From Lasiosphaeris hirsuta (lineage: Eukaryota; Ascomycota; Sordariomycetes; Sordariales; Lasiosphaeriaceae), in the NCBI GenBank assembly GCA_030549175.1, contig JAUKUA010000001.1, positions 930,001 to 994,000 of the forward strand: a DNA stretch of 64,000 nucleotides, given 5' to 3'. Shown here in pieces: positions 2,512 to 13,874 of the stretch (the first letter of the stretch is position 1; each line of letters begins with the position of its first letter). A program made the translations under genes and the position numbers. The notes below the pieces were generated by a model. It was not told the DNA's origin. It worked only from the letters and a program-made list of their open reading frames with translations, and did not search any database.

Positions 2512-3640
2512 TTATACAACCACGCACCGGCTCTCCCTGCCACTTCTCTTCCTCCTCCGCTTCCGCTTGGAGGATGAGGGGTCTTCGGCCTTTTGGTAGT
2601 AAATATCATGTGTGTCATCATGAGCGTCATCCCGTCGAAGCATCTGTCGGCAGAGGTCTACAAAAACCTCGTCGACGTTAACTGGCGAGTAAACACTGTC
2701 AGCAATGGGGTAGCAGGCGAGGGGCTGGATGACCGTACCCCGCGTCCTAGCACTGGCCTCGTAATATGGAGCTTGCCACCGCTGAGAGAGGGAGAAGGCT
2801 CTGGCACGATCAACAACACGTTGGTCGACTAGGTCGGCCTTGTTCCCGACAATGACGATGGGTACATTCTCGTCATCTTTAATGCGAATGATCTCCTCGC
2901 GCAGGGTGGCGAGCTCCTCGAGAGAGGTCCGAGAGGTGATACTGAAGACGAGGAGAAAGCCTTGGCCAGTCTTCATGTAGAGATCTCGCATAGCAACTGA
3001 ATGGTGGTGTGAGTCGTGGTTCCAATTGGACTGAGCCGGTTGGCACTCACCAAATTGCTCTGTGCCGGCCGTATCGAGGCTACATGCTGAGGTTAGAAGC
3101 CGGACTTGTCTCAGAAGGCACGCGAAGCCTTACATCTCTAGCATCACTTGCCGCCCCTGAACACGCCGTGTCAGCCAATGCCATGAAGGTAGTCATACAG
3201 AAGGCGGACATACATCGACAGAGACCTGTGTCCTGTATGAGTCCTCAATGGTGGGATCATAGCTCTCAATCCATTGGTTGTGCACAAACTGGGCTGTTTG
3301 CAAGAGTGGCCATCAACATTAAGGGGCTCAGGGGTAGCCGAGCAGGGATGGGGAGCCATACCGGTCAAACAACTTTTGCCGACACCACCTTAAGTAAGCA
3401 AGTCGTCATGTCAGCAGATGAAGCATGTGATGCCGACGTCTTGGCATGGGAAGGGGCACTCTTTTTGGATTTTGATCATAGGAGTGAAAGAGTAATAATA
3501 ATACAGAGTAACAAACCTGTTCCCAAAACGACCACATGATATTCACGGCTGCGTGAGAATTAGCACTTGGATATTTTGAGAGAGAGAGTCCTTGATGAGA
3601 CGGGTGCTCACGAAGGCTGGTAGCCGTATCTTGACGGCAT
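2512..3640 (-). CDS. Rap/Rsr1-type Ras small GTPase (KREV-1-like)
   Basis: Small GTPase of 215 aa, probably acting at the plasma membrane in polarity signalling, as Rsr1/Bud1 and Rap1 do. Eight exons (on the minus strand): 3612-3640, 3517-3548, 3362-3388, 3214-3293, 3134-3156, 3051-3079, 2739-2996 and 2512-2681, 648 nt in total. Visible motifs are the P-loop GTGGVGKS (residues 19-26), the switch I effector loop YDPTIEDSY (about 41-49), the G3 box DTAGTEQF (66-73), NKAD (125-128) and EASAR (153-157). A basic tail KRKRRRKR is followed by the prenylation box CVVV. Thr stands where classical Ras has Gln61, as in Rap1, and AMRDLYMK is also Rap/Rsr1-like. The first exon is inferred from ATG plus a GTGAGC donor. 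Five exons are shorter than 35 nt. The Rap/Rsr1 assignment is firm; the in vivo role is inferred from the family. Confidence 0.93.
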
Positions 3641-7334: not shown

Positions 7335-8881
7335 CTAACCCTCCTCCTCCTTCCCCCGGCCAACAGGTATCTCCCCATCTCCCATGTCTGTCTCGGATCC
7401 AGCTACCACAACAGCTGCGTTAATGTCGCCATCAGCCCGCTCAACATTCCCCATCTGTGCTTCCCTCTCCCGTCGGCTCTTCCGCTCGGCCCACTTGAAT
7501 GGAATCCCCTGCGCTTCATGTTCGGCCATGGTGTCGTCGAAGGTCTTGCCATCGGCTGCCGCCGCCTTACGCAGTTTGCGGGTGCGCAGGAGCCAGATGA
7601 GGTGAGAGACAAAGATGCCGAGTTCGAGGCAGGCACTGCGTCTTGGTTAGATATGGTGGGGTAGAAAGGTGGATTAGGGGAGGGCACACCAGAGGATGTA
7701 GAGGACGCCGCCGAGGACATCAAAGGTGAGTTGGGCGACTTGGGTTTGTTAGTTTCTACTGAATTATGTGGAGGAGGGTTGGTGGGACTTGCCGAGAGCC
7801 ATGAGACTGAAGACGGCACCGAGCCAGTCCATTGTGAGGAAGATCTTGAACTATTAGCCATGAAGACTGTTGGTTATGGGGTGGATGGGTGGTGAGTACC
7901 CAATTTATGCCGATCACGCGGCCGCGACGTTTCCAGATCTCGCCATATGGCGGGAGAAGTCCCACAGCGAGCAGGATGGCTGCTACAATGCCGACTATGA
8001 GCATCGGAGTTTCGTTTCCGCGATCGTAGACGGGCTTTGAAGGGTGAGTTGCGGGTCTTTGTGGTGAGTTATAGACGTGTTGGGGTTTACCTTGAGCGTT
8101 AAGATTAAGGCTGCCTCGATACCTCCAAAGATAATGATTATAGCGGCGCCTAGAAGAGATGCCTTCCATGTTGCCCAGTTTCTGTGTGAGGTGTTGGAAT
8201 CGGTACACTAGGTCAAAGGAAGGTCTTATGAGACTTACTCATGGTACATCAATGTCTGAACCCACCCGACAAGGCAGAGGACCAGAAAGACGTGTGGTTG
8301 GACTTGGAGCGGGATATTGAAGTTTTGTACGATTGCGTATACTCCAAACGGTACGCCGCCTGAGCGGTTGTTCAGTTTTTGGATCTTGAGATTCCTTGTC
8401 TAGGAGGAGTGAGCCACTTACAGAGAGCCCATAGAAACATCATTGTCCCCGGCAGTCCATCGGTCTTCTTCGTCCGCCAATTTGTCCATACTTGGGGAAT
8501 CAGCTGAGGAAATGTTAGTATGGTGAATGGGAGTACATTTCGGAGTGTTTTGGGTACGAACTTGGACACACCAGAATCTGTAGGCCAAATATCAACACTT
8601 TTAGTTCTCTGTGGCTAAGGGTAGGAACGCTTACACTAGCAGACAGATTTAGCAAGTCTCCAGAATCTTTGGTATTCTGTTTAAAGAGGTTCTTACCAGT
8701 GCCAATTGTCTATAAGCAACATGTCCGTGTTAGGATTGTGATTGTGCTGCAAGGGACAAATATGCAGAGGTCACTTACGCCGAGCACGTTGGCCGCCTGC
8801 GAGGGTAGTATTGTAAGTACAAGATCGCACAATTCTGCGGAAAGGGGCACATACTACGGGGATCTCTGTTTGCGGTGCCAT
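7335..8881 (-). CDS. PQ-loop repeat membrane protein
   Basis: Multi-pass PQ-loop protein of 303 aa, in the broad family of cystinosin/Ypq-type lysosomal or vacuolar transporters; its substrate is unknown. Twelve exons, given in coding order with descending coordinates: 8855-8881, 8779-8796, 8697-8709, a single base at 8635, 8562-8577, 8422-8503, 8239-8359, 8091-8181, 7900-8034, 7793-7850, 7690-7738 and 7335-7635. They total 912 nt, divisible by three. The first PQ loop reads FWCVQLIPQVWTNW (about residues 21-34). The second, GLLPPYGEIWKRRG, lies near the middle and has PP instead of PQ. Several hydrophobic helices follow, then a charged cytoplasmic tail. The start is ATG in MAPQTEIPV, the first in-frame Met. 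The intron after MAL uses a GC donor. Family assignment is firm; the microexon is an inference from frame and motif. Confidence 0.9.
7739..7792 (-). other. GC-AG intron in the PQ-loop gene
   Basis: The exon ends ATGGCTCTCG and is followed by GCAAGTCC, the usual GC-donor consensus; the acceptor is CCCAAG. Removing these 54 nt joins MAL to VAQLTFDVLGG in frame. No GT donor nearby keeps both the frame and the conserved sequence. Confidence 0.8.
8635..8635 (-). other. Predicted one-nucleotide microexon (T)
   Basis: Read on the minus strand, the base is flanked by GTCTGCTAG on the left and GTAAGCG on the right. The upstream intron (8636-8696, 61 nt) begins GTAAGA and has a TGCTAAAT branch-like site. 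The downstream intron (8578-8634, 57 nt) begins GTAAGC, has AACTAAAA and ends CTACAG. Joining G+T+A makes a Val codon and gives GTVFWCVQLIPQ. Without this base the next exon reads out of frame, and the CAA|CTGATT junction then gives a stop (AAC TGA). Confidence 0.72.
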
Positions 8882-11639: not shown

Positions 11640-13874
11640 ATGAAATCCACGGCGCTCTGGAGCTTTACGCTATTTACATGCCTCCCGTCCGTCTTGGGAC
11701 TAGACGCAACATTTCCCGCCTGCGCTGTGAGCTGTTTGGGGCCTGCATTTCAGGACTCCAGCTGCCCTGATCTAGGCTGTGTTTGCCAGCGAGACCACGA
11801 GCTGCAGGCAAGACAATCCCTCTCCCATCGAGATCATATTCTTGGCATTGGCTAACGCCTAGCTTATTTACAGAAACTGTTCCAATGCCTCTTCACAAAC
11901 TGTGATGCTGAGACATACGCTCCGGCTATCAAGCAAATCACCAATGATTGCATCAATGCGACTGTTGTCAACACCGTCCAAACCCATCTCAACATGCCGG
12001 ACCCCAGTCACCTCGCCACCCACAGCTCTCCCATATTGCTAAATGTCAACCTTGACATGGCATCCGGGGAAACTCCAGCCGTCGAATCTCGTGACACTGG
12101 CCGGCCGCTTGCACTGAGCGAGAAGTCGAGAGTTATACCCTTGGTTGACCGCACGATCAGCAACCCATCACCAATTGAGATGAACATCAACGTCAGCTAT
12201 GGGACAGGCAAGGTCAGCACAACTGGGACATCTATCAACCCAGGCACTCATGCCGAACGGCTTCTCTACGGAACATCTCCCGTACTGAACAACACTCACA
12301 TCTTGGCCGACTGTCCACCCGACCAAAATCCCAATGGTGATCGCAGCCCAGGCCCGTTTGTCACAAGCGGACCCCCTCCCCCAGGCCCACCTGGTCCTTT
12401 CATCACAAGTGGCCCTCCCTCCCCTGGGGCGGGAGGCAACGGTCAATCACCGCCCTGCCCACCAGGTGTCGGTCCCGGCGGAGGAGCAGGCAATGGCAAC
12501 GGCGGTGGGCAGCCTCCGTATCCTCCCCAGATCACAGTCACACAGTTTGTCGCAGCTCCCAGTCCACAAGCAGGGCCAGGCGACGGTTGGCCGCCATCCG
12601 GGGCTAGCGGTCCCGGCGATTATGGTCCTCCTGGTGGCGGTAATGGGGGGAACACTGGTGGTAACGGTCCTGCAGTATATGGCCCCAACTTTGGTCCTGG
12701 CGGCGGAGGATTTCCGAACGGCCTAGGTCCCAGCAATGGAGCTGGCGCCGGTCCCGCACCCTATAGGCCACCTCCTACCCCTTTCCCCGCTCTAGCACCC
12801 GCCGGTCCTCCTTTTTCTCCGCCCTTCCCCCCGGCCTTCCCACCCGCAAACAACGGACCTATCCTCACAATCGTCGAGACAGCAACAGTCTGCCTGAATC
12901 CGCCATCCCAGCCATCTCTTGCAGGACCGCCCTTCAACGCAGGCCCAGGATTTGGACTTCCCAACAGCAGTGGCTGGCCCAATGGAGATGGTCTCGGTAA
13001 TGGTGCGGGAGGTTCACCACCTTGCCCGCCCGGATCCCCATCCGGACTTGGCAATGGCAATGGAAACGGATGGCCAGGCCCAGGGCTAGGTCTCGGTATG
13101 GGTGCCGGTGGTGGGCAAAGCCCACCCTGCCCATCTCCAGCCAACATGCAAGGGCCGTTTGTCGAAACTGTTTTCGTCTTGGGAACACCAAGCCCAGAGG
13201 CTATTGTGTCCACAAGCTGCCCGTCATCGCCGCCACCTCCGCCTCCGCCTCCTCCTCCGCCTCCTCCTCCGCCTGCTCCTGCACCCTTCCCCGCAAACCC
13301 ATGGCCTGCACCTGCAATGCCGATGTTTCCAGCACCACCACCGCCGCCCCCGCCTCCTCCGCCTCCTCCGCCGCCTCCAGCACCGCCAATGTACGCGCCT
13401 CCATCTCCCCCATGCGCATACTATGGAGCCAAGTTTGTTGGAGCCAACCTTGAGGGACCGGTAGCAACGTCATTTCTTACCGTCACAGTTTCTGTTCAGC
13501 CCCAGGGATTCCAAAACAACGTAGCCTCGCCTGCGATGGGGGCTTATGGTGGTGATGGGACAGGGCCAGACAACGGAGGAGCTGGAGCACAGCCCGGCAG
13601 TGGAGCACCTGGAGTACAGCCTGGCCCTGGTGGAGTTGGCCCCGGAGGAATCGGTCCTGGAGGAGCCGGTCCTGGAGGAGTCGGCCCTGGAGCCGGTGGC
13701 GGAGTTGCGCCGGGTAACGGCGCTCCACCGCCGACTGTAACAGCCCCTGGTTTCTCACCATCAGCTCGCAACCCCTTTGCTCCAGCACAGGTGACGGCTT
13801 CCAAGGCCCCGATACGCAGGTCGTCCACCATTCTCCTTTGCATCCCTTTCCTCGGCCTCGCCCTCGTCTTGTGA
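11640..13874 (+). CDS. Secreted CFEM-domain protein with GPI-anchor signal
   Basis: Extracellular, probably cell-wall or membrane-anchored protein of 722 aa. Two exons, 11640-11807 and 11874-13874, give 2169 nt. Residues 1-20 form a signal peptide ending SVLG. A CFEM domain follows (about 24-86) with all eight cysteines in order: CAVSC, SCPDLGCVC, QCLFTNC and NDC. Known CFEM proteins bind haem/iron or act as surface receptors and virulence factors. The rest is a very long low-complexity stalk: Gly/Pro/Asn-rich blocks, two long poly-proline runs (13225-13275 and 13335-13385) and a GPGG[VIA] repeat (13620-13700). The C-terminus has a hydrophobic tail, STILLCIPFLGLALVL, typical of a GPI attachment signal. 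The single intron interrupts the CFEM domain and has a GC donor. The domain call is firm; a role in adhesion or iron uptake is inference. Confidence 0.92.
11808..11873 (+). other. GC-AG intron in the CFEM gene
   Basis: The exon ends GAGCTGCAG and continues GCAAGAC; the acceptor is TTTACAG before AAACTGTTCC. Removing these 66 nt joins HELQ to KLFQCLFTNC and completes the eight-cysteine CFEM pattern. No GT donor is available at this point. Confidence 0.85.
13590..13710 (+). repeat. Gly-Pro tandem repeat inside CFEM gene
   Basis: Degenerate 12-15 nt units encode GPGGV, GPGGI, GPGGA and GPGGV in series, flanked by related GAQPG/GVQPG units. It belongs to the coding sequence of the stalk and is expected to vary in copy number between strains. 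Confidence 0.8.

What the first reader, a model, noticed from the sequence alone, without database searches (positions are those of the whole stretch)
8562..8709. One-nucleotide microexon in a PQ-loop transporter gene
Between exons 8697-8709 and 8562-8577 lie 119 bases that split naturally into two ordinary introns (61 and 57 nt). Each has a GTAAG donor, a CTAAA branch-like site and a YAG acceptor, and a single T is left at 8635. Direct splicing without it shifts the frame and reaches a stop at the next junction. With it, the codon G-T-A is rebuilt and the conserved helix FWCVQLIPQ appears. The whole twelve-exon model then sums to 912 nt, exactly 304 codons. One-base exons are extremely rare; the case known to me is in a plant. 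An in-frame alternative exists: a GTACCC donor at 8557, giving DSGVSKF in place of VFWCVQ. It destroys the family motif.
Basis: partly seen in the sequence, partly recalled or inferred. Interest (0 to 1): 0.9.

Follow-up and report, generated by a model that had tools for sequence, protein, structure and literature searches.

The report
One-letter exon in a fungal gene
A fungal membrane-transporter gene appears to contain an exon of a single DNA letter; such exons are very rare and easily missed by gene-prediction software, but a few, including one in another fungal gene, are already published.

Summary
On the minus strand, 8696-8578 (119 nt) divides into a 61-nt and a 57-nt intron around one T at 8635. 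Both introns score as ordinary under a splice model trained on 264 kb of this genome (72 introns, this gene not among them); 33 of 20,000 shuffles give as good a pair around one base. The frame is lost without an added base. Exactly one residue between TIGT and FWCVQ gives the best Pfam PQ-loop score: 70.0 bits with T, 69.8 with the other one-base option (C8629), at most 57.0 for 11 readings without a one-base exon.

On splice and coding scores alone T8635 ranks only seventh of 327; with homology added it ranks first.

No RNA and no ortholog DNA could be reached, so the splicing is inferred, not shown. One-nucleotide exons are published for plant APC11 and VPS55 and for Fusarium CYP621A (2026). 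This is a probable new member of a known, very small class.

The parts
8855..8881 (-). exon 1 (27 nt), MAPQTEIPV
8779..8796 (-). exon 2 (18 nt), AANVLG
   Evidence: intron 1 of 58 nt before it
8697..8709 (-). exon 3 (13 nt), TIGT plus first base (G) of the Val codon
   Evidence: intron 2 of 69 nt before it
8636..8696 (-). intron 3, 61 nt, GTAAGA...TGCTAAA...CTGCTAG; GC 0.38
   Evidence: score 8.66, 14th percentile of 72 training introns; GC
8635..8635 (-). exon 4: one nucleotide, T (A on the + strand), middle base of Val codon GTA
8578..8634 (-). intron 4, 57 nt, GTAAGC...AACTAAA...CTACAG; GC 0.44
   Evidence: score 8.60, 14th percentile; GC
8562..8577 (-). exon 5 (16 nt), last base of Val codon plus FWCVQ
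8504..8561 (-). intron 5, 58 nt, GTTCGT...TACTAAC...CCTCAG; weak donor 1.56; a competing GTGTGT donor at 8571 (6.27) would drop FWCVQ
8422..8503 (-). exon 6 (82 nt), LIPQVWTNWRTKKTDGLPG..., the PQ motif
   Evidence: Pfam PF04193
8239..8359 (-). exon 7 (121 nt)
8091..8181 (-). exon 8 (91 nt)
7900..8034 (-). exon 9 (135 nt)
7793..7850 (-). exon 10; begins at 7850 (58 nt) or, better scored, at 7844 (52 nt)
7690..7738 (-). exon 11 (49 nt), preceded by a GC-AG intron (7792-7739)
7335..7635 (-). exon 12 (301 nt with stop TAG)
8629..8629 (-). alternative one-base exon C (Ala), with weak acceptor GTGTAAG and weak donor GTTCCT

Best explanation
The gene encodes a small fungal PQ-loop membrane protein, and the T at 8635 is a constitutive one-nucleotide exon. 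The spliceosome recognises introns 3 and 4 as two ordinary short introns (intron definition) and removes them one after the other, because the 3' site of one and the 5' site of the next are one base apart and could hardly be occupied together. If intron 3 goes first, the junction ACTGT|GTAAGC is a normal donor for intron 4. The retained T completes the Val codon G-T-A in the first helix and keeps that helix in register with the PQ motif. Shown here: sequence layout, splice-site scores, frame requirement, protein-family fit. Inferred: that the RNA is actually spliced this way, the order of steps, that it is constitutive, and that skipping gives a frameshifted, probably degraded RNA.
For: Introns 3 and 4 score 8.66 and 8.60, within the range of the gene's other introns (1.03-10.2) and above one 119-nt intron, 5.98. 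Median intron here is 58 nt; 3 of 72 training introns are 110 nt or longer. As good a twin pair arises in 33 of 20,000 shuffles. Pfam PF04193: 73.2 bits full length with T, 53.1 with the GTACCC donor; N-terminal part 70.0 with T, 69.8 with C8629, 47.5-57.0 for 11 readings without a one-base exon. A profile of eight other PQ-loop stretches of this genome ranks the two one-base solutions first and second of 327 (36.7 for T, 36.5 for C; best without any one-base exon 29.7), and they stay the top two in 8 of 8 leave-one-out runs. Splice, coding and homology together put T8635 first, 25.3 against 20.9. Gly 13 residues before the PQ proline is found in 7 of 8 of these stretches and in cystinosin (alignment). 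The 119 nt have GC 0.40, against 0.48 (sd 0.07) for training introns and 0.58 for training CDS.
Against: No RNA, reads or ortholog DNA could be reached. On splice and coding scores alone T8635 is seventh of 327, behind readings that keep intron 3 or both introns as coding (4.4 and 4.2 against -0.1). The gene finder, allowed one-base exons, used none: at one intron cost it found only the 3' end of this gene, at a lower cost it read through intron 3. The model needs a weak donor at 8561 (1.56) although a strong GTGTGT donor lies 10 nt upstream (6.27). Both branch sites are CTAAA, not CTAAC. 66 of the 327 solutions contain some one-base exon, so the possibility of one is not itself rare. C8629 fits the protein about as well: it beats T8635 in 2 of 8 leave-one-out runs and ties in one.
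Confidence: 0.8

Rival explanations
1. No one-base exon: intron 3 (or both introns 3 and 4) is coding, and exon 5 ends at the strong GTGTGT donor 8571, giving TIGT + 21 or 40 extra residues + ILLIPQ.
For: Best splice+coding scores of all 327 solutions (4.4 and 4.2); the form with intron 3 kept was chosen by the gene finder at the lower intron cost; in frame, no stop.
Against: Loses the match to profile positions 2-13 and the Trp 6 residues before PQ: 47.5 and 49.2 Pfam bits against 70.0. The 119 nt have intron-like GC 0.40 and a coding score of -2.6 nats in that frame, and carry complete GTAAG...YAG signals twice.
Confidence: 0.09
2. One ordinary 119-nt intron in the living fungus, with one base lost at the exon edge in this assembly (sequencing error) or as a real deletion (pseudogene).
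For: Cannot be tested without reads; explains the frame with one event.
Against: The rest of the gene is open through 301-303 codons; no run longer than two bases at either exon edge; a chance twin pair of this quality occurs in 33 of 20,000 shuffles; 119 nt is long for this genome (3 of 72 introns are 110 nt or longer).
Confidence: 0.05
3. A different ordinary splice form, such as a 99-nt intron 8696-8598 followed by a 26-nt exon to the 8571 donor (TIGTVLIFGLQILLIPQ), or the GTACCC donor (DSGVSKF).
For: In frame. The first keeps a hydrophobic helix; splice+coding -0.6 against -0.1 for T8635.
Against: Pfam 52.7 and 47.5 bits against 70.0; weak acceptor AAAAG (intron score 1.8); weak donor GTACCC (-0.93).
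Confidence: 0.03
4. A [D1,2] stwintron: the first intron splits the donor of an external intron as ACT|G[intron]TGTAAGC.
For: The class is known in ascomycetes; in frame together with the 8571 donor, splice+coding 0.0 against -0.8 for T8635 in the same run.
Against: The external donor GTGTAA scores -0.09, while GTAAGC two bases on scores 4.05. It shortens helix 1 by four residues; paralogue profile 23.9 against 36.7 bits. Combined 16.4 against 25.2 (first profile).
Confidence: 0.01
5. The one-base exon is C8629 (Ala), not T8635 (Val).
For: Same spacing; 69.8 against 70.0 Pfam bits; 36.5 against 36.7 in the paralogue profile.
Against: Flanking intron scores 6.1 and 2.1 against 8.66 and 8.60; donor GTTCCT -1.77, acceptor GTGTAAG 0.06.
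Confidence: 0.02

Closest known systems
Fusarium CYP621A one-nucleotide exon (Nelson and Syed 2026, PMC12940212; abstract, introduction, results and discussion read)
   Same: Fungal nuclear gene; AG-N-GT inside what looks like one long intron (139 nt in F. graminearum); omission breaks phase within a conserved protein motif; middle base of a codon.
   Different: Other gene and protein family; retained base G, not T; orthologs from 20 species compared and RNA reads in two species there, neither available here.
Plant APC11 one-nucleotide exon (PMC4674806; passages read)
   Same: One base flanked by AG and GT; needed for frame; [quoted passage not shown]
   Different: Plant; 422 nt of intronic sequence; tested with constructs in Arabidopsis and rice.
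Plant VPS55 one-nucleotide exon (PMC8831610; passages read)
   Same: Membrane protein whose first helix is misread if the base is missed; GTRAGT donor after the base.
   Different: Plant; conserved in many land plants; RT-PCR and RNA-seq confirmed; alternative forms in some lineages.
Ascomycete stwintrons (PMC6616335, PMC12403724; passages read)
   Same: Two U2 introns together, removed by consecutive reactions under intron definition in filamentous ascomycetes.
   Different: There one intron interrupts a splice signal of the other and no exon base lies between; here one base stays and both introns have complete signals of their own.

Membership tests
Nuclear one-nucleotide exon | Single base flanked by AG and GT of two introns of usual size | tested here: met
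   61 + 1 + 57 nt, GTAAG donors, TAG/CAG acceptors
Nuclear one-nucleotide exon | Omission breaks the frame; inclusion restores a conserved motif | tested here: met
Nuclear one-nucleotide exon | No canonical alternative explains the gene as well | tested here: inconclusive
   First on combined score, but seventh of 327 on splice+coding alone
Nuclear one-nucleotide exon | RNA containing the base | not testable with these tools
   no reads or cDNA held
Nuclear one-nucleotide exon | Conserved arrangement in orthologs | not testable with these tools
   Protein database switched off; one scan each of virus and prokaryote contigs, for close relatives only, confirmed none; no close paralog in the own genome at E 0.001
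PQ-loop protein (Pfam PF04193) | Profile match over the curated cut-off | tested here: met
   73.2 bits against a cut-off of 22; residues 11-69 to positions 2-60 of 61, same length
[quoted passage not shown]
   External donor would be GTGTAA (-0.09); in-frame readings lose the motif

The most novel reading that the evidence does not exclude
The pre-mRNA holds two overlapping one-nucleotide exons, T8635 (Val) and C8629 (Ala), with the stronger GTGTGT donor at 8571 and retention forms competing, so that single-base exon choice acts as a switch between a working transporter and non-productive RNA.
Probability: 0.05. Interest if true: 0.7.

Novelty: new member of a known kind. Interest (0 to 1): 0.5.

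Why it matters
If the RNA confirms it, this would be another fungal gene with a one-nucleotide exon besides CYP621A, in an unrelated protein family and with a base other than G. That would suggest the class is under-counted because gene finders cannot see it. The pieces are small enough for a direct test of how two introns one base apart are removed in order under intron definition.

Tried and rejected
Single 119-nt intron (frame lost); donors 8557, 8567 and 8571; acceptors inside the 119 nt; exon 3 extended with a GTCTGC donor at 8644; stwintrons D1,2 to D5,6 (no D5,6 element occurred), A1,2 and A2,3. In the combined score all come below T8635. Shared intron positions were sought in own-genome relatives: L003 and L004 have introns near the site, but at other codons by my reading. 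Orthologs were sought and not found: protein database switched off, one scan each of viral and prokaryote contigs with six peptide patterns confirmed no relative, no close paralog. Solved structures give only weak cystinosin matches (best E 0.14). A first exon model was off by one base at several later exons and was redone. A first self-training of the splice model drifted to poor introns (292) and was replaced by a stricter one (72 introns). The first paralogue profile contained intron read-through residues in the L003 and L004 rows; I corrected these and rescored: the margin of T8635 over the best reading without a one-base exon rose from 5.4 to 7.0 bits. MAFFT put a 3-residue gap upstream of the helix in three of six stretches; I used a hand alignment anchored on PQ instead. 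A genome-wide count of AG-N-GT twin introns was not obtained. Structure prediction was not tried: the tool takes letter-for-letter translations of the window, and a spliced protein is not one.

Full report
What is there. The gene lies on the minus strand, 8881 to 7335, with twelve exons (27, 18, 13, 1, 16, 82, 121, 91, 135, 52 or 58, 49, 301 nt) and introns of 49-69 nt, one of them GC-AG. Without an added base the frame ends at the next junction. I would start exon 10 at 7844 (TTCAAG acceptor), giving 906 nt and 301 aa rather than 912 nt and 303 aa.

Are the two introns ordinary? I trained donor, acceptor, branch and length scores on 264 kb of the same genome: the window plus 200 kb of the same contig. 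From 46 genes kept, 72 introns were used; median length 58, and 3 of 72 are 110 nt or longer. The PQ-loop gene was below the score limit for training (4.6 against 20). Introns 3 and 4 score 8.66 and 8.60, the 14th percentile of the training set but within the gene's own range of 1.03-10.2; a single 119-nt intron scores 5.98. In 20,000 dinucleotide shuffles of the interior, 33 contain a twin pair around one base with at least the observed sum; of 704 scored donor-to-acceptor segments of 100-140 nt in the 264 kb, the one that reaches it is this one. GC is 0.38 and 0.44 in introns 3 and 4; training introns average 0.48 (sd 0.07) and training CDS 0.58.

Does the protein need exactly one base? I enumerated 327 canonical solutions from exon 2 to exon 6, 315 distinct readings; 66 of the 327 contain some one-base exon. 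Two readings keep AANVLGTIGT-x-FWCVQLIPQ with one residue at x: T8635 (Val) and C8629 (Ala), both one-base exons. I sent 17 of the 315 readings to Pfam. PF04193 gives these two 70.0 and 69.8 bits. Four that keep T8635 but move another site get 55.5, 61.2, 61.4 and 62.7; 11 without any one-base exon get 47.5-57.0. All 327 were scored with a profile of eight other PQ-loop stretches of this genome (loci of 8 of the 11 matches; L001/L004 and L005/L007 lie close together and are probably two loops of one gene each). The first profile held intron read-through in two rows; corrected, T8635 gets 36.7 and C8629 36.5, and the best reading without a one-base exon 29.7, with poor splicing. In 8 of 8 leave-one-out profiles the two stay on top; T alone is first in 5, tied in 1, and C is first in 2. 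Without L008 the margin falls to 23.5 against 19.3.

The profile is a hand alignment anchored on the PQ motif; MAFFT on six of the stretches placed a 3-residue gap upstream of the helix in three. Gly 13 residues before the PQ proline occurs in 7 of 8 stretches, two of them (L003, L004) after removing an intron that I chose by eye, and in cystinosin in the alignment (E 0.14, weak). That Gly alone is not specific: 53 of 327 solutions have one there. At the Val site the eight stretches have V, G, V, A, I, G, F, A, so Val and Ala are both acceptable. T is preferred over C because of splice sites: 8.66 and 8.60 against 6.1 and 2.1.

What speaks against it. On splice and coding scores alone T8635 is seventh of 327, behind readings that take intron 3 or both introns as coding, the best two ending exon 5 at a GTGTGT donor (8571) that scores 6.27 against 1.56 for the donor the model needs. 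Allowed one-base exons, my gene finder used none in the window or the 200 kb at either intron cost; it found only the 3' end of this gene at one cost and read through intron 3 at the other. Homology is therefore what decides. Adding it in nats puts T8635 first, 25.3 against 20.9 (25.9 against 20.7 with the uncorrected profile), and 25.2 against 20.0 when stwintrons are allowed (uncorrected profile). This sum includes no extra penalty for the rarity of one-base exons, which would narrow the gap. I recall fungal relatives with a TVxWCxQLIPQ-like helix, but no call showed one; this is a lead, not evidence.

How it would work. Ascomycete splice sites pair by intron definition, and nested introns are removed by consecutive reactions (PMC6616335, PMC12403724, passages read). 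Two sites one base apart could hardly be used at the same time, so removal should be stepwise, as proposed for APC11 (PMC4674806, passages read). After intron 3 leaves, the donor of intron 4 keeps a normal score (4.05; 4.43 before), and the cryptic ACT|GTGTAA donor is poor (-0.09). The order is inferred, not shown.

Known cases. One-nucleotide exons are published for APC11 and VPS55 in plants (PMC4674806 and PMC8831610, passages read) and for CYP621A in Fusarium, with RNA reads in two species and the claim of first in a fungal gene (PMC12940212, abstract, introduction, results and discussion read). A single-base exon in placozoan mitochondrial cox1 appears as a title in the listing; I did not read it. 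The completed searches for such exons were made; timed out, so other cases may be in print. None of the titles and abstract beginnings shown names a PQ-loop gene.

Verdict. Observation confirmed; interpretation favoured at about 0.8; class already known, so a new member.

Noticed in passing
window 8881-8562, minus strand: The 5' end of the gene is split into unusually small exons (27, 18, 13, 1, 16 nt) with introns of 57-69 nt.
   Followed up: partly
window 7792-7739, minus strand: GC-AG intron (GCAAGT...CCCAAG) with an AACTAAC branch-like site, needed to keep the frame.
   Followed up: partly
window 7109-7096, minus strand: Run of 14 G about 230 nt downstream of the stop codon, a place where assemblies may slip.
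   Followed up: no
window 8034-7900, minus strand: A second, PQ-like stretch reads LLPPYGEIW: PP instead of PQ. Pfam reports one PQ-loop stretch only.
   Followed up: no
L003 1464-1517 and L004 1437-1499: Two other PQ-loop genes of this genome also seem to have an intron within the first helix, at other codons.
   Followed up: partly
window 2512-2991, minus strand: Open frame with the look of a Ras-type small GTPase (NKAD motif; naming recalled, not searched).
   Followed up: no
window 11994-13874, plus strand: 626-aa proline- and glycine-rich low-complexity open frame.
   Followed up: no
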